Shown in pieces: positions 17,359 to 61,298 of a stretch of DNA of 64,000 bases. This stretch comes from a virus. The stretch is from positions 62,001 to 126,000 of the IMG/VR virus record IMGVR_UViG_3300003690_000002; one strand, 5' to 3'. The translations under genes and the position numbers were made by a program. The notes under the pieces were generated by a model. That model worked only from the letters and a program-made list of their open reading frames with translations, was not told where the DNA came from and did no database searches. Positions within the stretch are counted from its first letter, which is position 1, and every line of letters begins with the position of its first letter.

Positions 17359-17367
17359 ATGCATCTC

Positions 17368-18129: not shown

Positions 18130-18139
18130 AAAGCCTCCA

Positions 18140-38959: not shown

Positions 38960-38984
38960 TATTTTCTCCGCATTATATTTTAAG

Positions 38985-39366
38985 TGGAGGCGCTGGGAGT
39001 CGAACCCAGGTCCAAAAGACTGCAAAAACACGATCATTCACAAAAATAGACGCATTCACCACCGAAGCGTCAACCACCTGATATTCCTATCAGGGAATCC
39101 ATTTACCAACTTAAAGGTGTTGACTACCGGAATATATAGTCATAAAAATGGCTAAATACCTACTACGCCCACCACCAATTTTTCTAAAAATTGGAAACGG
39201 CTAATATTTCTTTAGAAAGCTATTAACAACTTCCGATTATGCCGCCATGGCATAATCAAATTCAACGTTATCGTTGGCATTTATAAAAGTCAAGTATTTT
39301 TACTGTGTTACTTACACAGTTTTGCACGTTGTTTTATTCGTATTTTGTCGAAACCGTTTCGCCCCC
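38985..39366 (-). ncRNA. ssrA: tmRNA (one-piece, phage-encoded)
   Basis: The RNA starts GGGGGCGAAACGGTTTCGAC at 39366, the standard tmRNA 5' end with its D-loop-like part. The 3' end holds a T-arm with G-G-T-T-C-G-A-C and the sequence CGCCTCC-A, which pairs over 7 bp with the 5' GGGGGCG (one G-U); CCA is not encoded. The tag reading frame at 39278-39237 reads A-N-D-N-V-E-F-D-Y-A-M-A-A then TAA, matching the ANDxN...YAxAA pattern. Host tmRNA rescues stalled ribosomes and marks proteins for ClpXP. The order is standard, not permuted, so the host or donor is unlikely to be an alphaproteobacterium or cyanobacterium. Confidence 0.95.
39237..39278 (-). other. tmRNA tag-peptide reading frame
   Basis: Resume codon GCC at 39278-39276, then N-D-N-V-E-F-D-Y-A-M-A-A and a TAA at 39239-39237. 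The end A-M-A-A in place of the more common A-L-A-A still has the terminal Ala-Ala read by ClpX. Confidence 0.9.
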
Positions 39367-40688: not shown

Positions 40689-43600
40689 TTATCCTTTTAT
40701 ATTTATACCTGATATTTGTAGTAAATAGTCTAAGACTTCTTTAACTGGCTCGTTTTTATTAGCTTCTTTTAACTTAAGTTTTGATTTCCTTCTTTCTCTT
40801 TCATTTTCTTTATCAAAATCGATGCCTGGCCATGGACTTTTAGTATAAGCGCCTTCTACATTCCCACCACCCATAGTAGAAATTTCTTCTATTTCTTCTT
40901 TCCCTGTTTCTTCTTCTGTTTCTTTTTCCATTCTTTTTGCTGCTTCTGCCGATGCTATATCTGTTGCCCGCTCAACTTCGCGGGCAGTTTGTTCAGATTC
41001 TTTTTCTGTTTTTTCTGTCTTTTTTGCTTGTAGATCAAATTCGGTGCTTAATTGTTTAAACGTTTCTATATATTCTTCTTGTTTTTTAAACAAACTTTCA
41101 ATTGATTTATATACGTCTTCTAGAAATTTTTGATCTTGCATTAGTTCTTTAGTTTTTTCTTTTGCAAAATTACTTTTTTCTTTAAAGTCCATTGTTTTTA
41201 CATTAGAATTGTCTTTTTTAGCATCTCTAAAAAAATTTGCATCTTGTTCTTTTAAGGAATTATAAAAATATTTGGACCAACTTTCAAATAATAGTTGATC
41301 TTTTTTGTTTTCATTCATCGTTGGTATGTGATGTTGTCTAGAAACATCTCGACCAGTTATTTTACCTATATATTTTTTTCTGAACGCGGCTGATGGGTTG
41401 GTCTCTACTCCTTTAATATTTTTTGAATAATCATTCGGCACAACATGTACAGAGCCATCTGGCATTGTTACTTTGAGATCATCTTTTATATTAATTTTTT
41501 TAGCCACTAATTCTACCCAAGAATCCCATAGTTTTCGCGAAATATCTTCGGCGCCAGTTTCTTTTGCAATTTGCCTTAGAAACTCTACGTATTTTTGAGC
41601 TAATTCAATACCACCAGAAGTAAGTTTGATTATATTACTGTCGAATTCTCCAGCCTGGATAACTTTTTTACCAGATGCAGTAACTGAAGGTGTCCTAAAT
41701 CCTTTATCGCCGGGAGTCAGTATATTAAATTCTTTTGAGATTCCTTTATATATGTTTAGATTAATCGAATCAATACAACCCAATCGACCAATGATTAATT
41801 GGGTTGCAAATGCCGCTTTCGGTAAACCAAGTCCAGGTAATTTAATTGCTTCCAAATAAATATTAAATAATGCTTCTTCTTTTCTTAATCCACTAGAATT
41901 ATTATATTCATTGAACAAACCACTAAAACTAGAATATATGCTTTCCCTGTTTTTCCATAGATAATCAATTGCATGTTTGCGAGGACCCATAACCAATTGA
42001 CCAAACCCTGAAAAATCATATTTAGGTTGTTTTTCGCCTGGGTTTAATAAATTTCTGTCAGTCATTAAACCATCGTTTTTATGAACAAAATTTAATAATA
42101 TCGGGAACTTTGGCACCACATCATACCATCTCATTTGCTGAGTGCCAATTACAAACATCAAAACATCAGCTAGTTGGTCTGGAGAATACTGTGCATATTC
42201 ATTTATAAGAGGGTTATATTTGCAAAAACCAGAATCAAATTCTTTTGATAAATCTAATATAGCATCTTCAGAAGCCTCGTCTTCTTCTTGTTCTTTTAAG
42301 GTTCTCACCTCATCGTTTTTAATATTTTTCTCCAGCTGCTCTTCTACTAGCCGCAGAAATATACCCACTGGAAGTGAGCCGCCCTCCTTTATCATGTCCT
42401 GATCTTTTAATTTAATGTTGAGTATTCCGAGCACACTATCCGGATTGGAACCCGCAGGCATAAAATCTTCAAAAAGTTGTAGCGCAATAGGGCTCTCTGT
42501 AGCTAATTCAGCCATATAGCGCATATCAGAACCATGAAATTCTAATATATCTAGACCTTCCTTGAAGCTGGGTAAATTATCTAATATTTCTGTATTTTCT
42601 CTTAATATTGTAATGTAATTATCACTGTGGGTGATAACATCTGCTTGAGCGGCATACGTAATAGGATCTAATATGTTTACATCTGGTGTATATTTTTGTA
42701 TATTTTTTCCAAACCTTTGGGCGGCATCACCTCCTTTTGTGCTAGCGCCTAATATAATATTGGATCCTGCCACTTCTGGCTTATTTCCATATTCAATTGC
42801 TGCCTGGACCGGGGAGTTATATTCAGATACTTCCACATCCGCACTTAACCCAGAATTATTTAAATACAAGTTCCATATTTTCTTAGATTGTGCTGCTGTT
42901 ATGGGGATTCCCTCTTTTGGAGTTTTCCTTTCTAGCGGAGAAATTAAAATAATAATTTTATCTGCCAAGTCTATATAATGTTTTGCCATGGCTAAATGAC
43001 CAACATGAGGTGGTTTAAATGCTCCCGGAATTATTGCTAGTGTTTGGTGTGTTTCTTCTTCTGTTATTTCTGTTATCTCTTCCTCATTTTTATTACTAGA
43101 TTTTATTGGTGGTATTTTTCCTCTTCCATATTTAAAAAGACCCAATAGTTGATTTATTGGCGCAAAATTGCCAGTAAATTTGTACATTTGTTCGCCATAT
43201 TGAAAAACAAACCCTTCAACTGTTGTATTAATGTTATCTAAATGTTTAATTTTTTGAAGCTGTTTTGCTAAAATTTCATGAGCTTTGCTCGCACCGGGTC
43301 CGGCATATGTTTGTATATTTTTGATAGCTGTAGAAATTTCTTTCTTTTGCCTTGCAAGCTCTGCTTCATTATTTAAAATATAAGCACTTTTTAAACCTTT
43401 TAAAAGTTCAACAGAAAAAGTATGAATCGCTTCTTCAATCGGCCATATAGCATCATTAATCAGTGAAATTTCTGCAAATTCTACAAATTGCTTAATTCTT
43501 TGTTTTATGTCAATAGGAAAACCTTTATATATTTGAGTAAGAGATTTTGCTCCATCTTTTTTTAATATTCTATTAAGCACATCTTGTTGGATATCAGGGC

Positions 43601-44333
43601 TTAAAAAATTTAACTTTCTTTCTACCTCTCCGCGCAAATAGTTTTCCATATATTCTTCAATCGTCATATTTTTAGAAAAACCAGCTTTTTGTATTTTTTG
43701 TAAAGCAATATTTAGATCATAATCATTATCAAGTTGATTGAGTTTTAAAAATGCGGTACGGCGTACTGAAAATGGTATATCACTAGTTGCTTCTTCAAAT
43801 CTGTCAATTAAATCATCTAATAAATTTGAACCTTTTGATGCATCGACCGTTTCTAATGTATTTTTCTCTTCGTTATAAAATTTATGACCAACGTGGTGAA
43901 TGTTAATAACGTCTTCATCATAATTAATTATATTCTTAGCTGATGGACCTTGTATTTCAGCATTATAGAAGACTTCTTTATTTTCTCCAAAAATAATGTC
44001 TAATTCGCCTTGCGATAAACTATCTAATGTTCTCTCATAGGCTTTAAAAGCGTTTAAATATACTTTTTTAATTTCATCGCCGCCCTTAAACTTTCTTGCC
44101 GCTAAATCAGCGAATGTGCGACCACCTATTTTCATATCGCCTTTGTTTCTTGCCCAAGCGGGAGCCCATACAGCTTTATTACCTTTAATTCCCAAATAGA
44201 TATTAAAGCCATCAGTTTTTTCTGTGCCTTGAAGTTCTCCTCTTGAGGCAGCTGAAAGGATTTTTTTAATTTTATTAAAAGTTAGGTCTCTATCATCATA
44301 GAGATGCATTAAATGCTTAGCGACACCGCCCAT
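40689..44333 (-). CDS. 1,214-residue multidomain protein: nucleotidyltransferase domains, HhH-like and fused tagged C-terminus
   Basis: N-terminal E-G-T-E-K-T-D-G-F-N-I-Y near residue 37 is the K-x-D-G motif of DNA/RNA ligase-type nucleotidyltransferases. Residue ~430 on carries A-I-I-P-G-A-F-K-P-P-H-V-G-H, the GxFxPxHxGH-like motif of cytidylyltransferase/NMN adenylyltransferase domains; A-S-T-K-G-G-D-A is nearby. Around 760-900 a helical domain includes K-L-P-G-L-G-L-P-K-A-A-F-A, a HhH-like DNA-binding turn. From residue 1006 (M-N-E-N-K-K-D) comes a C-terminal part starting L-L-F-E-S-W-S-K-Y-F and then L-K-E-Q, a copy of the N-terminal capsid-tag motif inside the protein. Ligase- and NadR-like pairs are common in T4-like phages for nucleotide or NAD metabolism. 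The C-terminal piece looks like a fused tagged gene. Confidence 0.8.
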   Translation of the reverse strand: MGGVAKHLMHLYDDRDLTFNKIKKILSAASRGELQGTEKTDGFNIYLGIKGNKAVWAPAWARNKGDMKIGGRTFADLAARKFKGGDEIKKVYLNAFKAYERTLDSLSQGELDIIFGENKEVFYNAEIQGPSAKNIINYDEDVINIHHVGHKFYNEEKNTLETVDASKGSNLLDDLIDRFEEATSDIPFSVRRTAFLKLNQLDNDYDLNIALQKIQKAGFSKNMTIEEYMENYLRGEVERKLNFLSPDIQQDVLNRILKKDGAKSLTQIYKGFPIDIKQRIKQFVEFAEISLINDAIWPIEEAIHTFSVELLKGLKSAYILNNEAELARQKKEISTAIKNIQTYAGPGASKAHEILAKQLQKIKHLDNINTTVEGFVFQYGEQMYKFTGNFAPINQLLGLFKYGRGKIPPIKSSNKNEEEITEITEEETHQTLAIIPGAFKPPHVGHLAMAKHYIDLADKIIILISPLERKTPKEGIPITAAQSKKIWNLYLNNSGLSADVEVSEYNSPVQAAIEYGNKPEVAGSNIILGASTKGGDAAQRFGKNIQKYTPDVNILDPITYAAQADVITHSDNYITILRENTEILDNLPSFKEGLDILEFHGSDMRYMAELATESPIALQLFEDFMPAGSNPDSVLGILNIKLKDQDMIKEGGSLPVGIFLRLVEEQLEKNIKNDEVRTLKEQEEDEASEDAILDLSKEFDSGFCKYNPLINEYAQYSPDQLADVLMFVIGTQQMRWYDVVPKFPILLNFVHKNDGLMTDRNLLNPGEKQPKYDFSGFGQLVMGPRKHAIDYLWKNRESIYSSFSGLFNEYNNSSGLRKEEALFNIYLEAIKLPGLGLPKAAFATQLIIGRLGCIDSINLNIYKGISKEFNILTPGDKGFRTPSVTASGKKVIQAGEFDSNIIKLTSGGIELAQKYVEFLRQIAKETGAEDISRKLWDSWVELVAKKINIKDDLKVTMPDGSVHVVPNDYSKNIKGVETNPSAAFRKKYIGKITGRDVSRQHHIPTMNENKKDQLLFESWSKYFYNSLKEQDANFFRDAKKDNSNVKTMDFKEKSNFAKEKTKELMQDQKFLEDVYKSIESLFKKQEEYIETFKQLSTEFDLQAKKTEKTEKESEQTAREVERATDIASAEAAKRMEKETEEETGKEEIEEISTMGGGNVEGAYTKSPWPGIDFDKENERERRKSKLKLKEANKNEPVKEVLDYLLQISGINIKG

Positions 44334-47983: not shown

Positions 47984-49825
47984 CTACGGACCCTCCTCAC
48001 CACAAGCAGTTTCATTTAAAATCTCTGAGAGATATGCATATATTTCTGTTGCTGAGTTTGTTAGTTCATACCATTTTCCTAGCGCACTGGTTAAAGAAAG
48101 AGGTTCCCAACCACCTGCTTTACCAAGAAAATTATATGTTTTATAATATAATGAAGTAAATGTATAGATTGATAGTTTAGGATCTTGTTTAATCAAGTCT
48201 AATAAAATAGGTTGAGTAATATAACCATTGCCATATGCTGTCTTCCCGTTGATCGGGGCTATCGTGGGAGAATTCATATAGCTTTGTCCCTCTTCATCTG
48301 TAAAAACAATTATAACGTGATTCGCATTGGGTCGCCAACTTACCGAGAAATTTTGGAGATCAGGAACCGAGTCAACCCAAGGAATCCATTGAAGATCGGA
48401 TATTTGATAAGGCATTGAAGTTTGCGGTACAATTCCTTTCATAAGAAGATATATCATATCATAAAGCATTTCATAACCACCCTGTGTTTGAAAACCAGTA
48501 CTGGCAATTGTATTATAAAAAATATCAAAAGGCTCTAGATCAGAAACAAGAAGCGCTTTTTCACCCCACCCCAGATTATATGTGGGAGCGTATATAAAAC
48601 CCCATTTAACAGCAGATTGATCAGCGAATTCTTGTGAAAAAATGCTTAGTGCCGCTAAAACACCACTAATTTCATCTTCCATTGAACCAGAGCCGTCGAC
48701 AACAAAAATTATATCAGTATCTTGCATTTCTTTGCCATCGTCAATTAATCCATCACAATTATCATCTTGACCATTGCAAGCGTCTTTATCGTCTGGCGTT
48801 TTTTCATCGAGGCATAAATTTGGAATGAAATCATTATTACCGTCGTAGTTACCCCAATACCCGGCATCACAGATCATTTCACCAGGTAGACATATTCCAA
48901 TATTGAGAGTATCTATCGGACCGGTATAACACTCCTGAGCTAAACCCTCATCGATTAATTGGTTGCAGTTTTCATCATGATTGTTGCAAACTTCATTTTG
49001 TATGATCTGTCCAACTAGCGGATCGCACGGATTTGGTCCCGCTGTGGGGATATATGTACATAAAGCTTGGCAAGGTGACATTTGGAGCGCTTTACATTCC
49101 TCAGTAACACATTCGCACGTTTTAAAGCCTTGTCCGCACAAAAGAGGAGGTTCCTCACAAGGATATAAAACGCCAATTTGATCCCAAGTACATAAACATA
49201 GTAATTCTTCGTCAACTAACCCATCGCAATCATCGTCTTGACCATTACATACCTCCTCCTCGGGCTGTTGCGCAGTACAAAACCAACTACCATCTACACA
49301 TACGTTTAAATTTTCTTCACACGCCGTATTGCATTTTTCTATTAATCCTTCGTCTATTTTGCCATTACAATCATTGTCAAATCCGTCGCAAACTTCATCT
49401 GGGATGGGTCCGCATACATTACATGCATTTAATTGTCCCTCATCAACTAAGTCATCGCAATCATTATCAACATAATCGCAAACTTCCTCTGCTGGCTGTG
49501 GTGCATCACATGCCACAACCTTTCCTTCAACACAAAGACCATTCCCATCTCCGCATTCTGTACTACAAGGGTACTCGCCTTCATCTGTGGCACCATCACA
49601 GTCATTATCGATACCATCGCAGATTTCTTCTACGCAAGGATCACATATGCCGTATTCAAAATAACCTTTAAGGCAATAAACCTTTACAAAGCCATTAATT
49701 CCGTCTTCTGTGACACATTCTTCTTCTCTAATGACTTCATTGGTGGGAATACACTCTAAAATTTCTTCACATTCACTCATTTCGATAACTTTGTCATCAT
49801 CACAAATATCTACAATTACTTTCAT
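47984..49825 (-). CDS. Von Willebrand A protein with six MopE-type Ca-binding repeats
   Basis: 613 residues, no signal peptide. Six copies of C-x-G-x-D-N-D-C-D-G-x-x-D-E-G-type repeat (for example I-C-D-G-I-D-N-D-C-D-G and V-C-D-G-F-D-N-D-C-N-G) occupy residues about 65-365; the spaced aspartates form EF-hand-like loops. A VWA domain follows from about 372, with MIDAS D-G-S-G-S-M and later D-E-E-G. MopE repeats are characteristic of surface proteins of myxobacteria and relatives, so acquisition from such a host lineage is possible. It could be an adhesin on the virion surface or an injected Ca-binding protein. A 57-residue lipoprotein gene lies 10 bp upstream. Confidence 0.82.
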   Translation of the reverse strand: MKVIVDICDDDKVIEMSECEEILECIPTNEVIREEECVTEDGINGFVKVYCLKGYFEYGICDPCVEEICDGIDNDCDGATDEGEYPCSTECGDGNGLCVEGKVVACDAPQPAEEVCDYVDNDCDDLVDEGQLNACNVCGPIPDEVCDGFDNDCNGKIDEGLIEKCNTACEENLNVCVDGSWFCTAQQPEEEVCNGQDDDCDGLVDEELLCLCTWDQIGVLYPCEEPPLLCGQGFKTCECVTEECKALQMSPCQALCTYIPTAGPNPCDPLVGQIIQNEVCNNHDENCNQLIDEGLAQECYTGPIDTLNIGICLPGEMICDAGYWGNYDGNNDFIPNLCLDEKTPDDKDACNGQDDNCDGLIDDGKEMQDTDIIFVVDGSGSMEDEISGVLAALSIFSQEFADQSAVKWGFIYAPTYNLGWGEKALLVSDLEPFDIFYNTIASTGFQTQGGYEMLYDMIYLLMKGIVPQTSMPYQISDLQWIPWVDSVPDLQNFSVSWRPNANHVIIVFTDEEGQSYMNSPTIAPINGKTAYGNGYITQPILLDLIKQDPKLSIYTFTSLYYKTYNFLGKAGGWEPLSLTSALGKWYELTNSATEIYAYLSEILNETACGEEGP

Positions 49826-50087: not shown

Positions 50088-50429
50088 TTATGTTCTTTTT
50101 GGTATTGTAGTGAATTTTACGCCTAAAATTCTATCTCCCTCTTCATCTTTAATCTTTAATATTTTTGATCTTAAATAATCTCTATATGTGGCTATTGGTA
50201 TGTTTTTTGGCATGAATCTAACAGTTAAAACTGTTATTTTTTGAGTTGGACCGGTCTTTCTCGTCGCTGCCTCTGATTTGACAATTGTAACCCCATCAAT
50301 TGCCCTTATTTTGTTAAAAACGCTTGCATATAATGCCAAATCTTTAGAATATTTTATTAATATCTCTATTTCAAAGTGTTTTTCTTCCTCAAAGAGGTAT
50401 TTCTGCCAATTTTCAAATAATTTTTCCAA
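50088..50429 (-). CDS. Tagged protein with ferredoxin-like body
   Basis: 113 residues. TTG start at 50429, giving M-E-K-L-F-E-N-W-Q-K-Y-L-F-E-E; the L-F-E after residue 12 fits the proposed (L/I)-x-E tag cleavage. The body has two beta-alpha-beta-like units (I-E-I-L-I-K-Y and I-T-V-L-T-V-R-F), an ACT/ferredoxin-like pattern. Function unknown. Confidence 0.7.
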   Translation of the reverse strand: MEKLFENWQKYLFEEEKHFEIEILIKYSKDLALYASVFNKIRAIDGVTIVKSEAATRKTGPTQKITVLTVRFMPKNIPIATYRDYLRSKILKIKDEEGDRILGVKFTTIPKRT

Positions 50430-50715: not shown

Positions 50716-51411
50716 TTATGTTCCTTGAAATCCCGGAGGGGCTGTTTTTGAGCGCTCGTAAGAAGGTTTTTTAATATATGGAGGATTTTTTGACCTATTT
50801 CCACCCATGCCAATATTTTTTTTCTTTGATTTTTCGTGCCCTTTCTTAACTGAAGCTTGATAATCTTCATCTAATTCTTGCAAAGCTAAATGTATTGCTT
50901 TTTTTTGATCGGGGAGAAGACCTCTAAATCCGTCTATCTCATGAATATCTACCCATTCATATTCTAAATTCTCTTCTAAATCAAGATCTATTGCCCCGGA
51001 ATACCTGTCTGTTTTGAAATAAGCTACATTTTTATGTTTTTTAACAAGCTCTAATTGACTAATTTCCAAATTTGTTTCTTCTTTAACCTCTCTTTTGCCA
51101 CCTGTTGCTACATTTTCACCTTTTTTAACATGACCTCCGGGGAGATCCCAATCATGATTCTTGTCAGCACGCTTTAAAAGTAAAAATTGCTTCTTCTCAT
51201 TAAAAATAATAACTTTTGAGACCTCATTTGTATCACCACCCTCCTCTGGAAATCTAGTTTCAGAATCAGGCACAGAAGAAGCATCAGCATATTGCCAAGA
51301 CTCTTCTCCCGAGCCTCCATATTTTAATGGATCCCTATATTTCCAGTTTCCTGTGGACTCTGGCTGTTCTTTTATGTATTTTCGCCAACTCTCAATCAAT
51401 AATTTCATCAT
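50716..51411 (-). CDS. Tagged Nudix hydrolase
   Basis: 231 residues. Tag M-M-K-L-L-I-E-S-W-R-K-Y-I-K-E then Gln, with I-K-E as the site. The Nudix box G-H-V-K-K-G-E-N-V-A-T-G-G-K-R-E-V-K-E-E-T has the complete G-x5-E-x7-R-E-V-x-E-E-x-G-like pattern, with metal-binding Glu residues; a Tyr/Gly-rich end follows. Nudix enzymes hydrolyse nucleoside diphosphate derivatives, including NAD, caps and (p)ppGpp. With a tag it may act on host metabolites right after infection. Confidence 0.82.
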   Translation of the reverse strand: MMKLLIESWRKYIKEQPESTGNWKYRDPLKYGGSGEESWQYADASSVPDSETRFPEEGGDTNEVSKVIIFNEKKQFLLLKRADKNHDWDLPGGHVKKGENVATGGKREVKEETNLEISQLELVKKHKNVAYFKTDRYSGAIDLDLEENLEYEWVDIHEIDGFRGLLPDQKKAIHLALQELDEDYQASVKKGHEKSKKKNIGMGGNRSKNPPYIKKPSYERSKTAPPGFQGT

Positions 51412-51843: not shown

Positions 51844-52431
51844 TTATATCCCCTCATATAAATCAACGTATTCTTCCCAATCTTCTTCCGGGTCAAACGG
51901 TTTAACATCCGGCTCTGTTATTTCAGGCTTTTCAGGTGTTTTTTCAATAATTTTATTAGAAAATTGTTGCAAAGTTGACATATTTTGCTTAAAAAACACG
52001 AAAAAGAAGGGATTTTCATCACCTTCGTACTTAAATTCCTCTTTTTTTTCTTTAAATACCCCAAATTTATTATTTTTTGGTATAAATTTTTTCCAAACTC
52101 GAACTGCATCTGGGCTAGTTTCGTAGCTATCTGGTGAAAGACCTTTTTCTCCTGCCAATTCTAGAGCCATTAAGTACATGATTGTACCCACCCTTTCGCT
52201 ATTCTTGGGAGAAGATGACCACGATACTTCCCAATTAGGTACATCTATGCGTTTTTCAATAGAAATATAGGCATTTGTACCACTTTTTTTACTTGCTACT
52301 GGTTCTTTTGTGCTTATATCAAGTATATTTATGGTTATATCTTTTGAAGATTTTGTGATGTGATAAAAAAAATCATATGGGCTCTTATTCATATTTCTAT
52401 ATTCTCGCCAATTTTCAAGTAGGAGTTTCAT
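51844..52431 (-). CDS. Tagged protein with acetyltransferase-like domain
   Basis: 195 residues. Tag M-K-L-L-L-E-N-W-R-E-Y followed by R-N-M-N-K, so the (L/I)-x-E site is not obvious here. The centre (V-G-T-I-M-Y-L-M-A-L-E-L-A and S-P-D-A-V-R-V-W) resembles the GNAT-like domain found in many marine phage proteins (P-L-x-Y-x-x-A-x-E-x-A). Acidic Pro/Glu-rich tail. The catalytic features of an acetyltransferase are not certain. Confidence 0.65.
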   Translation of the reverse strand: MKLLLENWREYRNMNKSPYDFFYHITKSSKDITINILDISTKEPVASKKSGTNAYISIEKRIDVPNWEVSWSSSPKNSERVGTIMYLMALELAGEKGLSPDSYETSPDAVRVWKKFIPKNNKFGVFKEKKEEFKYEGDENPFFFVFFKQNMSTLQQFSNKIIEKTPEKPEITEPDVKPFDPEEDWEEYVDLYEGI

Positions 52432-52637
52432 TTATTTTCTCTCTTAATAGTATGTTTATTCCACTTTTGTAATTTTTTAATTAAATTCTCAAGGTTCCAT
52501 TTTCTTGGAACACAACACATTGGGAAAATAGCATGCAATAAAAAAACAATACCTCTAAATATTAAAACTAAACCAACTTTGCTAGCAAAAATTAAATGGC
52601 TCAAATAAGTTTCATTATTTTTCTTAAAATGATTCAT
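52428..52637 (-). CDS. DUF6356-like small membrane protein
   Basis: 69 residues. E-T-Y-L-S-H-L then a hydrophobic V-G-L-V-L-I-F-R-G-I-V-F-L-L and H-A-I-F-P-M fits the DUF6356 pattern (Y-L-x-H, then L-x-H-A-x-F-P). A basic Lys/Arg end follows. Overlaps its neighbours by 4 bp on each side. Function unknown. Confidence 0.65.
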   Translation of the reverse strand: MNHFKKNNETYLSHLIFASKVGLVLIFRGIVFLLHAIFPMCCVPRKWNLENLIKKLQKWNKHTIKRENK

Positions 52638-53266
52638 ACTTTAACTAGTTCTTTTTTTTCAAGGTCTAGTTTGTATCCAATTATTTCAGGATCAACTTCA
52701 CCTACGTTAAAAAAATCAAAACCAGGCAATATTGCTATTTTTTGTTCTGGAAAGGATCCTCTTTTTATAAAATAGCTAGCTTGACCTATAACTTCTGTAA
52801 ACAATGCTCCTGCGGCTTTAGGAGGGACCGTTTTCATATGTCCATTATATGCTGCTATTTCTCCTTGTAATGTAAAATCTGCACCTCTTTGACAGTGTGT
52901 CATGTAATCGTGTACTGCTCGTGTTTTTAAATTAAACTCGGGCTCAAATATAGGATGCTCCGTCCCGCCAGTCCAAATTTTTAAAACGCCATTTTGTGCG
53001 GCATCAGCGCACATTTCTTTCTCAGATGGGTAAGGATCTTCTTCTACAAACTGAACATCTACTCTAGATTGGATTCTTTGAAACATTTTATTGACAAATG
53101 GCTCTAGAGCTTCAAAAGAAGAAACTGCAGTGGGGTCAAACTCCGGAGCATTTTCATACGCTTGTGTAACTAATTCTCCATAAAGATCCCAACCATTTGG
53201 ACCAGGCTTAAGCATTAATTTTTCTGTTAATATAAATTCTCGCCAATTTTCAAGTAAAAGTTTCAT
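52634..53266 (-). CDS. Tagged protein with VHDYMTH-type phage domain
   Basis: 210 residues; start at 53266 on the shared tag repeat rather than the 10 residues longer frame. Tag M-K-L-L-L-E-N-W-R-E-F-I-L-T-E then Lys. The domain has R-A-V-H-D-Y-M-T-H-C, G-E-I-A-A-Y, and G-A-L-F-T-E-V-I-G-Q, a pattern I know from other marine phages without a function. The paired His may bind a metal. Confidence 0.7.
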   Translation of the reverse strand: MKLLLENWREFILTEKLMLKPGPNGWDLYGELVTQAYENAPEFDPTAVSSFEALEPFVNKMFQRIQSRVDVQFVEEDPYPSEKEMCADAAQNGVLKIWTGGTEHPIFEPEFNLKTRAVHDYMTHCQRGADFTLQGEIAAYNGHMKTVPPKAAGALFTEVIGQASYFIKRGSFPEQKIAILPGFDFFNVGEVDPEIIGYKLDLEKKELVKV

Positions 53267-53802
53267 GCCTGTACCCCCATAGGTGCACCGCCCCACAAAT
53301 ATCGAAATTTAAGAGAGGGTTTGTACGGATCGCCGTCGTCAATATAAACGCTGATATTCGTCACCGGGATCTCCTCGCCCTTTTTAAAAGCCACCTCCGA
53401 TTCATCATAAAACATTTTAGGTTCTTCACCAGCTGCCTGCGGATCGTAACCAAAATCTTCTGCAACCATTGCTGAGAGAATGACATGGAGTGTTTTCCCG
53501 CGATTTTTAGCGCCCCACGGGCTTGCAAAACTCACGGCAACCCTTCGGTCAAGAGTCCAAGAAATTCCAATGCCTCGATCAACCGCCTGGGCAAGTAGAA
53601 TCCGTGCGGCTTCTGGTGCGCTTAAGCCTGCGGGTTTGTCCCGAGCAATCTTTCTAATTTGAGATGCCAAAGTTGCAGAAGGCATATCCAATGCCATGCC
53701 TCTATATATTTTTCGCATTTTCTTGGGGCGGGATGGCTCTGATTGTTCTAGCAAGTACTCTCGCCAATTTTCAAGTAGGAGTTTGATTGCTAATCCTCCC
53801 AT
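53263..53802 (-). CDS. Tagged ADP-ribosyltransferase-like protein
   Basis: The tag is x-K-L-L-L-E-N-W-R-E-Y-L-L-E then Gln. The aligned start codon is ATC at 53787, preceded by GGAGG at about 7 bp; ATG at 53802 is 15 bp upstream in frame, so initiation is uncertain. The body resembles an ADP-ribosyltransferase: K-I-Y-R-G-M (Arg of the R-S-E motif), I-S-W-T and V-S-F-A (second motif), and Y-D-E-S-E-V-A-F (E-x-E motif). It is more GC-rich than the AT-rich genes around it. T4 Alt, an injected capsid ADP-ribosyltransferase with an N-terminal capsid tag, is the clear parallel. The final catalytic Glu and arginine are assigned from motif order only. Confidence 0.7.
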   Translation of the reverse strand: MGGLAIKLLLENWREYLLEQSEPSRPKKMRKIYRGMALDMPSATLASQIRKIARDKPAGLSAPEAARILLAQAVDRGIGISWTLDRRVAVSFASPWGAKNRGKTLHVILSAMVAEDFGYDPQAAGEEPKMFYDESEVAFKKGEEIPVTNISVYIDDGDPYKPSLKFRYLWGGAPMGVQA

Positions 53803-54200
53803 TGTGCTGGTTCTCTATGGCGCGTTAAATCAGTTACTACATTCTTGATGCGATTATGATAATCCTTTAAAGATTGTTCACCATATCGATATGGATCGAT
53901 ATAATCTTGTAATGCCACCTCTTTTGTTTTATATTTAAAATCATCAGAATTGCCGCTGTAAATATACATTGTTTTTAAAATACTATTAATTTCATTTTTA
54001 TCTTCTGTGGTTTTAAGTTTATCAAAAAAATCTAATAGTGTATTTGTCTGGTGAATGTTTTTGGATGGGTTCTTAATGATATCTAACTTTGTGATTTGTG
54101 AAAAAGTTTTTCCAATATCCCATGGTTCATCTTTAGGAGGAGGAAAAGAATCAATTCGTTCGTTTAAATATCGCCGCCAATTTTCAAGTAGGAGTTTCAT
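53790..54200 (-). CDS. Tagged protein of unknown function
   Basis: 136 residues. Tag M-K-L-L-L-E-N-W-R-R-Y-L-N-E then Arg, with L-N-E as the likely site. Helical, mixed charge; two conserved-looking Y-x-x-Y-x-E pieces (D-Y-I-D-P-Y-R-Y-G-E). No known domain. Confidence 0.7.
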   Translation of the reverse strand: MKLLLENWRRYLNERIDSFPPPKDEPWDIGKTFSQITKLDIIKNPSKNIHQTNTLLDFFDKLKTTEDKNEINSILKTMYIYSGNSDDFKYKTKEVALQDYIDPYRYGEQSLKDYHNRIKNVVTDLTRHREPAQWED

Positions 54201-54238: not shown

Positions 54239-54559
54239 TTAGACCGCGAAGGAAGAACCACAGCCGCAGGTGCGGGTCGCGTTGGGGTTCTCGAAATGGA
54301 AGCCGGAGAACTTAAAGGACTCGATGTAGTCGATGGTCGTGCCATCCAGATATTGGTGGCTCATGGGATCGACGTACACCTTCAAGCCATCACGCTCAAT
54401 GACTGAATCGCCCGCATTCTCTTGGTTTTCCAGATCCATATCGTAGGTGAACCCGGAGCATCCACCGCCGACGACCATCAGCCGAAGACCATAGCCTTCC
54501 AACCCTTGCTGATTGGCTAATTCTTGTACTTTTTTAATTGCTTTTACTGTAATGTTCAT
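54239..54559 (-). CDS. HesB/IscA/ErpA-type iron-sulfur cluster protein
   Basis: 106 residues. A-I-K-K-V-Q-E-L, G-L-R-L-M-V-V-G-G-G-C-S-G-F-T-Y, and the C-terminal T-C-G-C-G-S-S-F give three conserved Cys in the C-x(~64)-C-G-C pattern, the A-type carrier signature. GC content here is strikingly higher than in the genes on either side. It carries or assembles Fe-S clusters; no tag. Recent acquisition from a bacterial host is likely. Confidence 0.93.
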   Translation of the reverse strand: MNITVKAIKKVQELANQQGLEGYGLRLMVVGGGCSGFTYDMDLENQENAGDSVIERDGLKVYVDPMSHQYLDGTTIDYIESFKFSGFHFENPNATRTCGCGSSFAV

Positions 54560-54592: not shown

Positions 54593-55039
54593 TTACTGTG
54601 GGACTTCTTCTACTATGCCCTTTATATTAATCCCGCTCAAAGGTTCAAAACTTTCTTCTGGTATTTTATTGGAATGGAAAGGTTTTCCACCTCCTTCGCG
54701 ATTTACAGCAACCGTGACGTGAGGAAAAGATATCTTTTTACTAATCTCACCAGGAGCTTGGACCTTTACTGCCATAGCACGTTCATCTCGCCCCACGGCA
54801 ATAACTGATAATGTGATTTCAGATCCCAAAGGGTAATCTTTTGAAAAATCATGTTTGCCTTTGGGGTGAACTAGCGAAGCAAAAGGAGCAATTGTCATAT
54901 GATGTACAACCGGCTCCCAGCCTTCAGGGATATCTAATTCTAGAAGCTTATTACGCGATTCTTCATCTAATACTACACCGGAATAAGCAATTGCTTCGGT
55001 TAATGTATACTGTCGCCAATTTTCAAATAAAAGTTTCAC
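54593..55039 (-). CDS. Tagged 2H phosphoesterase-like protein
   Basis: 148 residues. GTG start at 55039 on the tag repeat; M-K-L-L-F-E-N-W-R-Q-Y-T-L-T-E then Ala, with L-T-E at residues 13-15. H-M-T-I at residues 47-50 and H-V-T-V at 107-110 are the two H-x-T-x motifs, 60 residues apart, of the 2H superfamily. G-V-V-L and P-E-G-W-E-P precede as in the RNA-repair-like group. Known 2H enzymes cut 2',3'-cyclic or 2',5'/cyclic oligonucleotide bonds; T4 Acb1 is a 2H enzyme that degrades CBASS signals. Function here is by analogy. Confidence 0.72.
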   Translation of the reverse strand: MKLLFENWRQYTLTEAIAYSGVVLDEESRNKLLELDIPEGWEPVVHHMTIAPFASLVHPKGKHDFSKDYPLGSEITLSVIAVGRDERAMAVKVQAPGEISKKISFPHVTVAVNREGGGKPFHSNKIPEESFEPLSGINIKGIVEEVPQ

Positions 55040-55965
55040 TATTGTCTCCTCGTTTTTTTATAAACATCGTATACTTCTTTACTCGATTCTGTGCCTTTTT
55101 TAGCTAGGGATTTACCATAATCCAAGGTTTGCTGCAAATTACCTTCCCACTTAATAGTTACTTCACGGTACCAAGCTTCTGTACGAGCGCCAATATCAAT
55201 CCACCGGTCAAGTAATTCTACTCTGTCTCTTTCCGGAAGATCTTTCGCAAAATCTTCACCTCGGACCACATCTTTAAGCCCATCATATAAGACATTTAAA
55301 CCTTTATCGATCCCTTCCTTAGAGTTCATAAAATCATGTTTACCTTTTGCTTGGTGTAAATCGTCAATGCTGGCTAATAGTTTATATAAATGAGTGGGAG
55401 TTTTACCCTTCTCTTGACGTATATCAATAATGTCGACCAATTGTCCTTTCATTCCATCGACAATATTATCAGATACAGGCTTACCGCCGTAAGTAAGCTT
55501 CGCTTGGGCTTCGTTCTCAAATAGTACAGCAAAAGCAATATAAAAAGCAACTACAGTTAGCGTCATAGTCGCGACTTTACATACTGTGGGGTGGCTGCCG
55601 CAAAATCCTTGTACCTTCCTAATTAACCATCCTATTGATTTTAATGCTGCCATACCTGCCCTTCTAGCCAAGTCGACAAGCTGTACGGATTTTTCTAAAA
55701 TCCAATCATTTATCTTTTCCCACCCTTTCTGCAACAAGCCTGAACGTTCAGATGGAGGCTTATAATCAGGATCTGCTGTTAATTCGGCTTCTTTTTCCCA
55801 ATCTATTCCTATTTCTTCATTTAGAGAATTAAGTTCGAATAGTACAATATCTTGCCATCTTTCAATTAATTGATTATCAGAAATCAATCGTTTATCATGT
55901 TGTTCGCATATTAATTGAAATGGATTATCATTATATTTTCGCCAGTTTTCAAGTATGAGTTTCAT
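55039..55965 (-). CDS. Tagged protein with a central membrane span
   Basis: 308 residues. Tag M-K-L-I-L-E-N-W-R-K-Y then N-D-N-P, without the usual (L/I)-x-E at that place. One membrane span (A-T-M-T-L-T-V-V-A-F-Y-I-A-F-A-V-L, about residue 140) sits between Trp/Lys-rich helices (N-side) and charged helices (C-side). A packaged protein with a membrane helix would fit an ejection-channel or membrane-acting role; this is inference. Confidence 0.65.
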   Translation of the reverse strand: MKLILENWRKYNDNPFQLICEQHDKRLISDNQLIERWQDIVLFELNSLNEEIGIDWEKEAELTADPDYKPPSERSGLLQKGWEKINDWILEKSVQLVDLARRAGMAALKSIGWLIRKVQGFCGSHPTVCKVATMTLTVVAFYIAFAVLFENEAQAKLTYGGKPVSDNIVDGMKGQLVDIIDIRQEKGKTPTHLYKLLASIDDLHQAKGKHDFMNSKEGIDKGLNVLYDGLKDVVRGEDFAKDLPERDRVELLDRWIDIGARTEAWYREVTIKWEGNLQQTLDYGKSLAKKGTESSKEVYDVYKKTRRQ

Positions 55966-55980
55966 TTAATCCTCCTTAAG

Positions 55981-56748
55981 TCAAAGTGCTTCATTTATAT
56001 ATTCTTGTGGTTCAAGTTCAATCTTCGCGTGGGGATATCTGCTCATTAAATAATATCTCCATAATTCTCTAATTCTTCTTACTAGTGGGGTCAATTCTTC
56101 TTCTGCATATCCATAATTTAATCCAGTGTAATAAATTTCATTAATTATGTTATCAAGAAGCTCTCCAATTGGTTGTTTTTCTGTTTTTGCTCTTTTATAA
56201 ACTCCTGCGACGTGTCCTTTTACTTCAGATTCGCTTGTATAATAATCTTTAGCGGTTTGTAAAGTTTTCCATATTTCTTTGTCAGGAATCTTTTCGTAAA
56301 CTTTTTTAAGCATTTCAGTTGGCTGTCCGCTATGTTCTAACTCGTGGCGTAACGTTTCTTTGAGTTTTGGAATTAATTCTGAAAAATCTTTATTGGTATA
56401 AAGTTGTGGGAACTCAATATTAACATATACATCTGATAATTGTCGATCCTCTTCTGGTGCGTCTAAAATCCAATCATAGCTTCCATGTACAATAATACTG
56501 TGATCGTCTTCTAAATCAGATATTTTAACATTAACAATTATATCTCTAACCCATTTCAAATCTTCTAGCAGATCTGCTACTAGTGTAAATGTGGCTTCTC
56601 CGTTACTTTCAATATATGATCTTAGATCTTCATCTTTGAGCGCTTTAATAATTTCTCTTGAAAAATCAGTTGCATAACGATCTAAGCGTCGACCAGTAGT
56701 CCCAGCTTCATTTATAAATGTACGCCAATTTTCAAGTAGGAGTTTCAT
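55981..56748 (-). CDS. Tagged HExxH metallopeptidase-like protein
   Basis: 255 residues. Tag M-K-L-L-L-E-N-W-R-T-F-I-N-E then Ala, with I-N-E the proposed site. L-R-H-E-L-E-H-S-G-Q near residue 137 is an HExxH helix; S-E-S-E-V-K-G-H-V-A follows about 33 residues later, a plausible third-ligand helix. Mixed-charge helical body. A packaged or injected protease is possible. Confidence 0.72.
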   Translation of the reverse strand: MKLLLENWRTFINEAGTTGRRLDRYATDFSREIIKALKDEDLRSYIESNGEATFTLVADLLEDLKWVRDIIVNVKISDLEDDHSIIVHGSYDWILDAPEEDRQLSDVYVNIEFPQLYTNKDFSELIPKLKETLRHELEHSGQPTEMLKKVYEKIPDKEIWKTLQTAKDYYTSESEVKGHVAGVYKRAKTEKQPIGELLDNIINEIYYTGLNYGYAEEELTPLVRRIRELWRYYLMSRYPHAKIELEPQEYINEAL

Positions 56749-56982: not shown

Positions 56983-57765
56983 TTATACTATGTTATTTCC
57001 ATTAATTGACATCATTTTATCATAAGATAATATTCTTAAGCTCGATAATTTTTGAAGATAATCGTTTCTTCTTAGGACTTTGAATGCTAAGTTTTCAACT
57101 GAGAATGCTCCTCTCGTCTCTAACCCACACTGTCTAAATTTCCTTATTTTTTCCCTAAGCTGTTCTGAAGCGTTTAATGCTAACTTGTACTCTTTGTTAG
57201 AAAACATCTCATAGACTTCATCTATATCTTCCATTAATCTTGCAGCTTTTTTCTTAACATTTATATAATCAATCTTTGGGTTTTCTTTTGAGGGCTCTGT
57301 TACCCATCCATTATCAATTATTGAATATACTCCTGTTGAGTGATGTGGTTCACCTGAGTTTTGTACGTATAGTTCTACTTCAAATCCTTTTATTTTTATA
57401 TTGTGATTTTTATTCCATATACTTGAGCTTTTTCTTAAAAAATCTCCAACTAATTCAAAATTTTCATCAACTTCTTTATAATCAATTATAATATGTAAAT
57501 CTATATCTGAATATTTAGACCAAGTATAGTTTGCTAAAGACCCCGTAATTGTAATATCTAAAATTTTAACCCAATGCAGCCCAAGGCTTTCAAAAAAATC
57601 ATTTGCTACTTTATAAAGTTTATTTTTTATTTTTGATTTTAATTTGCCTCTTTCCCACACATCTGAATTAAGCTCATCTTGTATCTCAAAGCTTGAAACG
57701 TCAACGGATTCTGGATTGACTAATTCTTCAAGGTAAATCTCCCAATTTTCAAAGAGTTTTCGCAT
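56983..57765 (-). CDS. Tagged nucleotidyltransferase-fold protein
   Basis: 260 residues. Variant tag M-R-K-L-F-E-N-W-E-I-Y-L-E-E. The body has I-T-G-S-L-A-N-Y-T-W-S-K-Y-S-D-I-D-L-H-I, the Gly-Ser ... D-x-D of the polymerase-beta nucleotidyltransferase fold (G-S-x-x-N-x-x-x-x-S-D-I-D-L). About 100 residues of helical C-terminus. This fold adds nucleotides to proteins, tRNAs or antibiotics; the target is unknown. Confidence 0.75.
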   Translation of the reverse strand: MRKLFENWEIYLEELVNPESVDVSSFEIQDELNSDVWERGKLKSKIKNKLYKVANDFFESLGLHWVKILDITITGSLANYTWSKYSDIDLHIIIDYKEVDENFELVGDFLRKSSSIWNKNHNIKIKGFEVELYVQNSGEPHHSTGVYSIIDNGWVTEPSKENPKIDYINVKKKAARLMEDIDEVYEMFSNKEYKLALNASEQLREKIRKFRQCGLETRGAFSVENLAFKVLRRNDYLQKLSSLRILSYDKMMSINGNNIV

Positions 57766-58393
57766 ATTTTAATTCCTCTAGCTCTTCAATTGTTTTATTA
57801 ACAGATGTATGTAATATTGCAATTCCGCCGACCTTTTCCCATGGAACTGTGTTTATTGTGAAGTCATCAATTAGCACATTAGGTTTTTCATCTGCAATTG
57901 CCCATTTATATTTTTCGTGCGACATAAATATTTTTTTTGGTTCTGGGTGAAGATTGTTTTTAATCCAAATTTCTTTTCCTCTTTTTGATCCTTCACCTTT
58001 CATCGGTGCTGTTAAAATATAAGGATCGAATTTGCTTATATAAGACCATAATTCTTTTCCGCCTTCAGCCCAGGGGAGATTTGCCCAAAAATCTTCATTA
58101 TCTTCAAGTCGTTTATACATATATTTTCTTGCAGCCTGTAATCTATTCTCTTTATCCATTTTATCTAAATCTTGCGGAGTAACTGAATCGCGTCCAAGTT
58201 TAGAAAGTACGTGCCTTAATTTCTCCATTTTTTTGTCAGTAATGTTTTTATCTTTTAAATCTAAATTTATTTGTTCAAGTGCGCCAGTTTCAAAATCTAC
58301 CAACACTCCATCCATGTCGCAATAAATTTGATATGGAAAACTTTCATTTCCTTCTTGTAAATAATTTTGCCAATTTTTTAAATATTTTTCCAT
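57749..58393 (-). CDS. Tagged HAD-family 5'(3')-nucleotidase-like protein
   Basis: 214 residues. Variant tag M-E-K-Y-L-K-N-W-Q-N-Y-L-Q-E then Gly. HAD motif I Y-C-D-M-D-G-V-L-V-D-F, motif II P-Y-I-L-T-A-P (Thr), a Lys in S-H-E-K-Y-K-W and motif IV V-L-I-D-D-F. This is the 5'(3')-deoxyribonucleotidase type. Overlaps the nucleotidyltransferase gene by 17 bp. May dephosphorylate nucleotides; may be packaged. Confidence 0.75.
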   Translation of the reverse strand: MEKYLKNWQNYLQEGNESFPYQIYCDMDGVLVDFETGALEQINLDLKDKNITDKKMEKLRHVLSKLGRDSVTPQDLDKMDKENRLQAARKYMYKRLEDNEDFWANLPWAEGGKELWSYISKFDPYILTAPMKGEGSKRGKEIWIKNNLHPEPKKIFMSHEKYKWAIADEKPNVLIDDFTINTVPWEKVGGIAILHTSVNKTIEELEELKYAKTL

Positions 58394-58678: not shown

Positions 58679-58891
58679 TTATAGATTATAGAAAGATTCA
58701 TTCATATGTCCACATGACGAGCAGTGGAATAGTTGAACAGGTACCATCATTTCTTGACCAGTGGGGGAGATTAGCGCAGACAATTTTTTAATAGCATATA
58801 CTTGTTTAAAAAATAAGCAGCCACACTCTTCACATGTGGCATCTTCAGCATCGTTTAAATTAATATTTAAATTTTGATTATCTTGATTCAT
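58679..58891 (-). CDS. Zinc-ribbon protein
   Basis: 70 residues from M-N-Q-D-N-Q-N-L-N at 58891. C-E-E-C-G-C and C-S-S-C-G-H give two CxxC pairs for a zinc ribbon, separated by about 35 residues. Overlaps the tagged gene downstream of its start by 14 bp. Could be a small regulator. Confidence 0.65.
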   Translation of the reverse strand: MNQDNQNLNINLNDAEDATCEECGCLFFKQVYAIKKLSALISPTGQEMMVPVQLFHCSSCGHMNESFYNL

Positions 58892-59201
58892 CTTCACTAA
58901 CTCTACTTGGGTCACTATCATTAAGTTTTCTAATAGCATGTCTAAGCAGTTCTTTTGCCAACTTGCTTGGATCTACTTCAGGCGAAGTGTGATCTATGCT
59001 ATCTTGTGCTAATCGTAGTGCTAACTCTCTTAATTCCTCTGCCGCTCCCTCATGGGCTTTGGATAATTCTTTTTGATACAACGCAGAGGCGAAATCTGTT
59101 TGTGGGGGGTTTTTAAAATAACTAAACTTATCATCATTATAGTCTAATTCGACAAGGCTTTCTTGAATTAGATTTTTTAATTGATTTCGTGTAAGTTTCA
59201 T
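58878..59201 (-). CDS. Protein with second-type tag (MKLT family)
   Basis: 107 residues. N-terminus M-K-L-T-R-N-Q-L-K-N-L-I-Q-E then Ser; the I-Q-E is an (I/L)-x-E site. The body is a helical, mixed-charge protein with no known domain. The tag is shared with two genes near 61 kb. Confidence 0.7.
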   Translation of the reverse strand: MKLTRNQLKNLIQESLVELDYNDDKFSYFKNPPQTDFASALYQKELSKAHEGAAEELRELALRLAQDSIDHTSPEVDPSKLAKELLRHAIRKLNDSDPSRVSEDESR

Positions 59202-60724: not shown

Positions 60725-61029
60725 TTATTTTTGTGATTTTTTTAGATAGTCTGTTTCTCTTGTTTTTGCTTCCTCTACGTCGTACGCCGTAGATCTACGT
60801 CGTATTCTTCAAATTTAGCGATCCAACGTAATGCGGATTCCAACTTTTCCGAAGGCTTATTACCTGGTAAACTAGACGTTGCAAGAAAATCCCACAATTC
60901 GTAATAAGCCTCGCTATGTTGCGTTTGCTCCTCATCTGAAAAAGGCTCTGCTGCAAGATCTTCCTCGTTAACATATTTTTGTACTTCTTCTTTAATAATA
61001 TGTCTTAAATTTAATTTAGTTAACTTCAT
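60725..61029 (-). CDS. MKLT-tagged protein with likely 20-bp frame-shifting insertion
   Basis: The ORF from ATG 61029 (M-K-L-T-K-L-N-L-R-H-I-I-K-E) reads to a TAG at 60775-60777, ending E-Y-D-V-D-L-R-R-T-T (84 residues). A 20-bp unit (two copies of T-A-C-G-A-C-G-T-A-G-A, about 60777-60811) looks inserted here; skipping it would continue the frame E-Y-D-V-E-E-A-K-T-R-E-T-D-Y-L-K-K-S-Q-K to a TAA at 60725-60727, a natural helical C-terminus. So the gene may be truncated by a small duplication. Helical, acidic body; function unknown. The intact ORF is 60775-61029. Confidence 0.65.
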
Positions 61030-61298
61030 TAGATTTCCTCTACAGAAGTTCCGGAAAGATCTTCCTCTTCCGGATATCCGGCTTGTTCTTTTTTCCACTC
61101 CTTAACATACATTTCGAAATTTTCTGTTAAAAATCGTTTACCTACGGGTGGCATTACCTTATACAGTTTATCCGCGCTCGTCATCACTTGTCTCATCTCA
61201 GTAATCCACCATTGCTCACCCCTTGGCTTATCGGGATCAATGGCTTCTTCCAAAGTTTCTTTAATGAGTTGTTTAAGTCTAGATTTGGTTAGTTTCAT
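61029..61298 (-). CDS. MKLT-tagged small protein
   Basis: 89 residues. Tag M-K-L-T-K-S-R-L-K-Q-L-I-K-E then Thr. Its stop and the next start overlap (TAATG). Helical body with E-M-R-Q-V-M-T-S-A-D-K-L and K-E-W-K-K-E-Q. Function unknown. Confidence 0.7.
   Translation of the reverse strand: MKLTKSRLKQLIKETLEEAIDPDKPRGEQWWITEMRQVMTSADKLYKVMPPVGKRFLTENFEMYVKEWKKEQAGYPEEEDLSGTSVEEI

What the first reader, a model, noticed from the sequence alone, without database searches (positions are those of the whole stretch)
53263..53802. Tagged ADP-ribosyltransferase-like protein parallels T4 Alt
Seen: the tag with L-L-E, then Y-R-G, W-T/S-F-A and E-S-E-V-A-F in ART order. Known: T4 Alt is an ADP-ribosyltransferase with a capsid tag that is injected and modifies host RNA polymerase. 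Inference: an injected host-modifying enzyme, which also supports the tag hypothesis.
Basis: partly seen in the sequence, partly recalled or inferred. Interest (0 to 1): 0.78.

Follow-up and report, generated by a model that had tools for sequence, protein, structure and literature searches.

The report
Phage capsid-tagged ADP-ribosyltransferase in T4-like virus
A T4-like virus of uncultured bacteria carries a small enzyme that looks like a host-modifying ADP-ribosyltransferase behind a short N-terminal tag with the layout of T4's capsid-packaging signal, and the same tag sits on about a dozen neighbouring proteins and on many unrelated enzymes in other phages, which suggests a shared 'load into the head and inject' address.

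Summary
The ORF at 53263-53802(-) encodes 179 aa with the tag IKLLLENWREYLLE and R-S-ExE motifs in the right order. Pfam finds nothing. A profile of its family matches T4 ModA/ModB ADP-ribosyltransferases well above 200 column-shuffled nulls, with S-W-T and E-S-E on the known active-site residues; T4 Alt does not match. So the enzyme is probably a minimal Mod-type ART, Alt-like only in its presumed delivery. The predicted fold is ART-like but not significant against the PDB.

The tag is the stronger story. The same record encodes a gp21-type S77 prohead protease, a gp23-type capsid protein and a gp20-type portal. In 113 tagged ORFs of three tag types, [LI]xE ends at residues 13-15 in 100 (controls 6 of 158). 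The layout matches the T4 IPIII targeting sequence shifted by four residues. Five cargo families, the ART included, carry one tag dialect in some phages and another in others; the two dialects never mix in 17 contigs. One dialect is conserved at DNA level in at least 117 viral stretches, on dozens of unrelated cargos.

Packaging, cleavage, injection and catalysis are inferred, not shown.

The parts
53263..53802 (-). Tagged ART-like gene, 179 aa; overlaps the end of the upstream gene (53790-54200) by 13 nt and the start of the downstream one (53266) by 4 nt
53746..53787 (-). NWR-type tag, residues 6-19 (IKLLLENWREYLLE), ending in the putative gp21-type cleavage site L-L-E after residue 19; the DNA matches the 26-nt tag consensus with one change, ATG to ATC
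53332..53721 (-). ART-like domain, about residues 28-157
53698..53706 (-). Y-R-G, residues 33-35; R34 = putative NAD-binding arginine of R-S-ExE
   Evidence: R and G invariant in A5 including the mycobacteriophage relative; position order as in T4 ModB R73-G74 (PMC10468400)
53524..53562 (-). S-W-T-L-D-R-R-V-A-V-S-F-A, residues 81-93 = S motif
   Evidence: aligned by hhalign with S-F-S-T-D-F-N-T-A-R-S-F-A of a Mod-family protein
53395..53403 (-). E-S-E, residues 134-136 = putative ExE catalytic pair
   Evidence: aligned with D-E-R-E-W of a Mod-family protein; T4 ModA DEQEV
50088..50429 (-). Neighbouring gene with NWR tag (MEKLFENWQKYLFE)
50716..51411 (-). NUDIX hydrolase with NWR tag (MMKLLIESWRKYIKE)
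51844..52431 (-). NWR-tagged protein of unknown function; [LI]xE missing at residue 14
52634..53266 (-). NWR-tagged phrog_3170 protein; homologous stretch in an actinophage protein annotated structural (Rhodococcus phage E3 gp205)
53790..54200 (-). NWR-tagged protein, unknown function
54593..55039 (-). NWR-tagged 2H-phosphoesterase-like protein (HMTI...HVTV)
   Evidence: phrog_36523
55039..55965 (-). NWR-tagged 308-aa protein
55981..56748 (-). NWR-tagged 255-aa protein
56983..57765 (-). NWR-tagged nucleotidyltransferase-fold protein
57749..58393 (-). NWR-tagged 5'-3' deoxyribonucleotidase/HAD-like protein
58878..59201 (-). Protein with the second tag type, LTK (MKLTRNQLKNLIQE)
60775..61098 (-). 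Protein with an LTK tag after a 5' extension (MKLTKLNLRHIIKEE)
   Evidence: by eye
61029..61298 (-). Protein with LTK tag (MKLTKSRLKQLIKE)

Best explanation
The gene encodes a minimal ADP-ribosyltransferase of the R-S-ExE type, most like the T4 ModA/ModB family, carried behind a capsid-targeting propeptide. Proposed mechanism: (1) late in infection the amphipathic tag binds the prohead core, as the T4 internal-protein targeting sequence does; (2) the phage's S77 prohead protease cuts after the E of [LI]xE (here after LLE, residue 19), freeing the enzyme inside the head; (3) the enzyme is ejected with the DNA; (4) in the new host it transfers ADP-ribose from NAD to a host macromolecule before phage genes are expressed, either to redirect host machinery or to disarm a defence. 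Shown here by computation: tag, motif set, remote Mod-family similarity, T4-type head genes, tag dialects. Inferred: steps 1-4 and the target.
For: ART: R34, W82-T83, A..F and E134/E136 invariant in ten sequences including a mycobacteriophage one; family profile vs 11-member Mod-family profile scores 38.9 (46.1 with the mycobacteriophage row) against a maximum of 23.9 in 200 column-permuted nulls, with the S motif and ExE aligned; a single-sequence test gives the Mod-family protein 41.4 vs best decoy 23.6; AF2 model pLDDT 76.8, pTM 0.74 with ART-like order of elements; ART-fold entries (IcmQ, PltC, PltA, cholera A1, TreX) recur among the weak PDB hits. Tag: S77 protease E=1.5e-32, Gp23 capsid 1.7e-71, Portal_T4 4e-77 in the same record; [LI]xE ends at 13-15 in 100/113 tagged ORFs vs 6/158 controls; in 108 instances found only by the first 26 nt of the tag, E is residue 14 in 91 of the 103 that reach it, and DNA conservation falls to background after codon 14; T4 ipII/ipIII start MKTYQEFIAE, where residues 4 and 7 target and 8 and 10 govern processing (PMC9026906), matching W8, Y11, L12, E14 here with a +4 shift; five cargo families incl. 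the ART swap tag dialect between phages while dialects never mix in 17 contigs; capsid proteins of both dialects carry LRE where a gp23 propeptide would end.
Against: No Pfam or relevant PHROG match for the protein; no PDB fold match at E <= 0.001 and the significant BFVD matches are proteins of no stated ART function; hhalign did not place YRG on YRG of the Mod protein, so the first motif is matched only by order. In this copy the tag begins at ATC with a five-residue extension. The tag of 51844-52431 lacks [LI]xE. No proteomic data exist for this uncultured phage.
Confidence: 0.7

Rival explanations
1. The ART reading is right but the protein is made early in the infected cell and acts there, like T4 ModA/ModB; the tag has another job, such as docking cargo to a replication or transcription complex or to the membrane.
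For: The catalytic domain is closer to ModA/ModB (which act after being made in the infected cell) than to Alt. The genes lie far from the head cluster (G000 115 kb vs 11-23 kb).
Against: [LI]xE at the tag end fits the cleavage logo of T4-type proteases and is shared by three different tag types; conservation stops at the would-be scissile bond; an LTK-tagged gene sits next to the protease gene (16921-17532 beside 17536-18144).
Confidence: 0.14
2. The passenger is not an active ART: the R-S-ExE set is degenerate or convergent and the domain is an NAD/ADP-ribose binder (as I recall for IcmQ) or another fold, possibly a stoichiometric inhibitor of a host defence as T4 IPI-III are.
For: Top PDB hit is IcmQ with E 0.14, an ART-like domain I recall as non-catalytic; S of the S motif is H in the mycobacteriophage relative; no database family hit.
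Against: R34, W82-T83, F92, E134 and E136 are invariant across ten sequences down to 31% identity, which is unusual for a dead enzyme; profile similarity to a biochemically proven enzyme family.
Confidence: 0.12
3. The shared 5' ends are mainly a DNA-level feature: a recombination anchor or translation leader copied between genes, and the peptide has no address function.
For: The tag is conserved at synonymous sites beyond protein need: CTC at Leu3 in 25 of 29 although only 5% of Leu codons; the exact 26 nt occurs in at least 117 stretches.
Against: The other tag types (LRE, LTK) keep the same residue-14 geometry with unrelated DNA, and conservation of residues 11-14 goes by amino-acid class. 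DNA spread and peptide function are compatible.
Confidence: 0.05
4. Chance motif string in an unrelated small phage protein.
For: Motifs are short and no curated family recognises the protein.
Against: 0 of 200,000 shuffles, 1 of 214 ORFs, conservation and profile match.
Confidence: 0.03

Closest known systems
T4 ModA / ModB ADP-ribosyltransferases (R-S-ExE clade)
   Same: Order of YRG, S-x-[ST]..A..FA and D-E-x-E; profile similarity well above nulls; small size (200-207 aa vs 179).
   Different: Mod proteins start with no such tag; here the Mod N-terminal region is absent and the tag stands instead; longer spacing between YRG and the S motif; about 26-30% identity in the aligned region.
T4 Alt, the virion-packaged ART
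   Same: Presumed logic: ART with an N-terminal propeptide removed by a gp21-type protease, packaged and injected (PMC5694885, PMC9503650).
   Different: No detectable sequence kinship; 179 aa vs 682 aa; tag unlike Alt's MELITELFDE.
T4 internal proteins IPI-III and their capsid-targeting sequence (CTS)
   Same: A short N-terminal tag ending in [LI]xE on otherwise unrelated proteins; hydrophobic residues at the same distance from the cleavage site (Y4/F7/I8/E10 vs W8/Y11/L12/E14); same protease family.
   Different: Tag 14 rather than 10 residues; three tag types, two of them mutually exclusive between phages; cargo include enzymes of many families; more cargo genes per phage than the three IPs plus Alt of T4.
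Polyvalent-protein and MuF-linked phage ARTs (Iyer et al. 2017, PMC5512222; PMC9503650)
   Same: Phage ARTs predicted to be head-packaged and injected.
   Different: Single domain with a presumed cleavable tag instead of a fusion to MuF or a giant multidomain protein.

Membership tests
ADP-ribosyltransferase superfamily, R-S-ExE clade (Mod-like) | Arg of [YF]RG after the first strand | tested here: met
   R34 invariant in 10 homologs, order as in T4 ModB R73; not aligned by hhalign
ADP-ribosyltransferase superfamily, R-S-ExE clade (Mod-like) | S-x-[ST] motif before A..FA | tested here: met
   S81-W-T..A..FA aligned with S-F-S..A..FA of Mod; S is H in one distant relative
ADP-ribosyltransferase superfamily, R-S-ExE clade (Mod-like) | E-x-E catalytic pair | tested here: met
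   E134-S-E136, both E invariant; aligned with Mod DEREW/DEQEV
ADP-ribosyltransferase superfamily, R-S-ExE clade (Mod-like) | Profile-level homology to a known ART family | tested here: met
   38.9 / 46.1 vs null maximum 23.9; none in Pfam
ADP-ribosyltransferase superfamily, R-S-ExE clade (Mod-like) | ART fold with NAD cleft | tested here: inconclusive
   Model pLDDT 76.8; PDB best E 0.14 (IcmQ), other ART folds at E 1-3
ADP-ribosyltransferase superfamily, R-S-ExE clade (Mod-like) | NAD-dependent ADP-ribosylation | not testable with these tools
   Needs a biochemical assay
T4 Alt family | Sequence homology to Alt and its large N-terminal region | tested here: not met
   hhalign score 16.1, within decoys; 179 vs 682 aa
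T4-type capsid-targeted internal protein | Short N-terminal propeptide ending in [LI]xE | tested here: met
   LLE at residue 19 here (5-residue extension in front), residue 14 in 90 of 113 tagged ORFs
T4-type capsid-targeted internal protein | Phage encodes a gp21/S77 prohead protease, gp23 capsid, gp20 portal | tested here: met
   S77 and gp23 co-occur in phages of both dialects
T4-type capsid-targeted internal protein | Same tag on several unrelated proteins of one phage | tested here: met
   15 NWR- and at least 9 LTK-tagged ORFs in this record
T4-type capsid-targeted internal protein | Protein present, cleaved, in the virion and injected | not testable with these tools
   Needs virion proteomics
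ART-PolyVal polyvalent protein | ART-PolyVal domain inside a large multidomain protein | tested here: not met
   No PF18760 match for the window protein; single domain

The most novel reading that the evidence does not exclude
A large group of uncultured T4-like phages uses short, phage-specific N-terminal address tags ('dialects') to load dozens of unrelated enzymes (ARTs of several clades, NUDIX, 2H phosphoesterases, kinase-like, HAD, ParB-like, nucleotidyltransferase, GNAT-like) into the head for injection. Cargo genes move between phages and exchange their tag for the resident dialect, helped by DNA-level conservation of the tag as a recombination anchor, and some cargo are polyproteins with internal tags that the prohead protease would split.
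Probability: 0.55. Interest if true: 0.8.

Novelty: new variant of a known kind. Interest (0 to 1): 0.62.

Why it matters
Head-packaged, injected effectors are known in detail for a handful of phages (T4 Alt and IPs, P1 Dar, SPN3US). A sequence-recognisable packaging tag on many genes would turn 'which phage proteins are injected?' into a database query, name dozens of candidate early host-takeover or anti-defence enzymes, and make the recognition code of prohead cores testable through its dialects. The ART is one such candidate with a clear enzymatic assay.

Tried and rejected
Pfam, PHROGs and PADLOC on the protein: nothing relevant. PDB sequence search with the profile: only spurious light-harvesting proteins. 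First AF2 model with the tag included was poor (pLDDT 65), so the domain was refolded with ten sequences. T4 Alt as homolog: rejected. tblastn in named phages: only E > 0.1 hits, but these led to the mycobacteriophage relatives and, through a homolog, to the Mod family. Viral scans with a Mod-family protein and with the mycobacteriophage domain gave only close copies. Mycobacteriophage relatives carry no Pfam domain either. HY-type ART candidates among other tagged cargo are by eye only, apart from one sub-threshold PF18760 match. Rhodococcus phage E3 gp205 'structural protein' as packaging evidence: weak, because it is a large protein of another architecture and the basis of its annotation was not found. 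No phage paper mentioning the tag peptides was found; the text matches were unrelated.

Full report
WHAT IS THERE. The ORF at 53263-53802(-) is as described: 179 aa, tag IKLLLENWREYLLE followed by YRG, SWTLDRRVAVSFA and DESEV. It lies in a run of co-oriented, often overlapping genes, most of which start with the same tag. The window is bases 62001-126000 of a 186,398-base IMG/VR virus record. That record has a T4-type head module: Gp23 capsid protein, S77 prohead protease, T4-type portal, large terminase, tail sheath.

THE ENZYME. No family library recognises it. Homologs with about 50-58% domain identity were found in other viral contigs and in two MAG contigs. R34, W82, T83, A89, F92, E134 and E136 are invariant even when a 31%-identical mycobacteriophage protein is added. 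Profile-profile comparison with 11 Mod-family proteins gives 38.9 (probability 79%) or 46.1 (91%) against a maximum of 23.9 in 200 column-permuted nulls; the S motif and the ExE pair fall on their counterparts. PMC10468400 states that ModA and ModB have the R-S-ExE active site and that R73A/G74A inactivates ModB. T4 Alt is not detected. Fold comparison is suggestive only: ART folds recur among PDB hits but none is significant; nine BFVD hits at E < 0.001 are phage proteins with no stated ART function.

THE TAG. Three tag types occur: NWR (MKLLLENWREYLxE), LRE (MNLLREYIRELLxE) and LTK (MKLTKxKLKQIIKE). The detection patterns use residues before 12 only. In 113 tagged ORFs [LI]xE ends at residue 14 in 41/56 NWR, 32/40 LRE and 17/17 LTK; at 13-15 in 100/113 against 6/158 untagged ORFs (the Fisher p of 3e-51 ignores relatedness). 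PMC9026906 reports that the first 10 residues of T4 IPIII suffice for packaging, that residues 4 and 7 govern targeting and 8 and 10 processing. T4 ipII/ipIII start MKTYQEFIAE; aligned at the cleavage site, Y4/F7/I8/E10 correspond to W8/Y11/L12/E14. Capsid proteins from phages of both dialects carry LRE where a gp23 propeptide would end, by position only.

TAG SWAPPING. The ART relatives keep the domain but change the tag: NWR in the window and L002, LRE in L023/L025/L026; in L024, L029, L043 and L044 a tag sits between an extra N-terminal module and the ART, which would make a protease-split polyprotein. Five cargo families in all occur with both dialects. Within 17 contigs the NWR and LRE tags never co-occur: NWR DNA in 12, LRE DNA in the other 5. 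This is what is expected if each phage has its own receptor for the address. S77 protease and gp23 genes are found in contigs of both dialects (many of the rest are fragments).

DNA LEVEL. The NWR tag is conserved at synonymous sites (CTC CTA CTT, with CTC only 5% of Leu codons). The exact 26 nt occurs in at least 117 stretches of viral contigs. In 108 distinct instances conservation is low before the ATG and falls to background after codon 14; E is residue 14 in 91 of 103 although the search pattern ended in codon 9; 99 passengers form 48 sequence clusters. The tag therefore also behaves like a mobile 5' cassette (inference).

MECHANISM AND STATUS. Best reading: tag-directed loading into the prohead core, cleavage after [LI]xE, ejection with DNA, then ADP-ribosylation of a host molecule. 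None of these steps is shown for this phage. Injected, tag-sharing proteins of T-even phages are anti-restriction factors (PMC12373910; PMC9391042), and many myovirus ARTs are probably head-delivered (PMC9503650). This makes the reading plausible and also makes the finding a variant of a known kind. The target cannot be named from sequence; RNA polymerase is only one option.

CAVEATS. The start codon of this copy is unclear: a Shine-Dalgarno-like GGGAGG lies just upstream of ATC at the usual tag start, and the in-frame ATG is five codons earlier. Structural support is weak. Cargo functions other than NUDIX, HAD/nucleotidase and nucleotidyltransferase rest on motifs read by eye. Sequence instances are related to each other, so counts are not independent events.

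Noticed in passing
53787 (ATC) and 53802 (ATG), window minus strand: Where the other NWR tags have ATG or GTG this gene has ATC, with GGGAGG just upstream inside the end of the preceding gene; the usable ATG is five codons upstream. Weak start, sequencing error or start-codon decay.
   Followed up: partly
54593-55039 (-): NWR-tagged protein with two HxTx motifs (HMTI, HVTV), i.e. 2H-phosphoesterase-like, a fold I recall in the T4 anti-CBASS enzyme Acb1; tagged relatives in L114, L117, L145.
   Followed up: partly
L083, L085, L087, L111, L126: Tag-only mini-ORFs MKLLLENWRG[ILM]* of 11 codons that stop right at the ATG of the next gene: five cases, unexplained (untagging by a stop codon, or a leader peptide).
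   Followed up: no
L024, L029, L043, L044; window 40689-44333: Tags inside longer ORFs (between two modules; in the window's 1214-aa protein near DQLLFESWSKYFYNSLKEQ), as if the prohead protease would cut polyproteins.
   Followed up: partly
L005, L008, L012, L032 (14592-15095), L087, L120: Other tagged proteins look like ARTs of the H-Y-type clade (YHAT, YHGT, YHAS, YHFS motifs); one has a sub-threshold PF18760 ART-PolyVal match.
   Followed up: partly
38984-39366 (-): tmRNA gene in a phage genome, predicted tag peptide ANDNVEFDYAMAA.
   Followed up: no
54239-54559 (-): Untagged HesB/IscA-like iron-sulphur carrier gene (by eye) in the middle of the tagged cargo array.
   Followed up: no
11496-31836 (-): Long island of sugar-nucleotide, NeuB-like, aminotransferase, glycosyltransferase and radical-SAM-like genes (by eye), probably surface-glycan or virion-glycan synthesis.
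   Followed up: no
47984-49825 (-): 613-aa protein with repeated EVCDGxDNDCDG motifs and a VWA-like segment, a style I associate with Myxococcota and related bacteria; possible host hint.
   Followed up: no
G000 141454-144047: Cluster of small proteins with the LTK tag MKLTKxKLKQIIKEEL, outside the window; a similar N-terminus sits beside the protease gene (16921-17532).
   Followed up: partly
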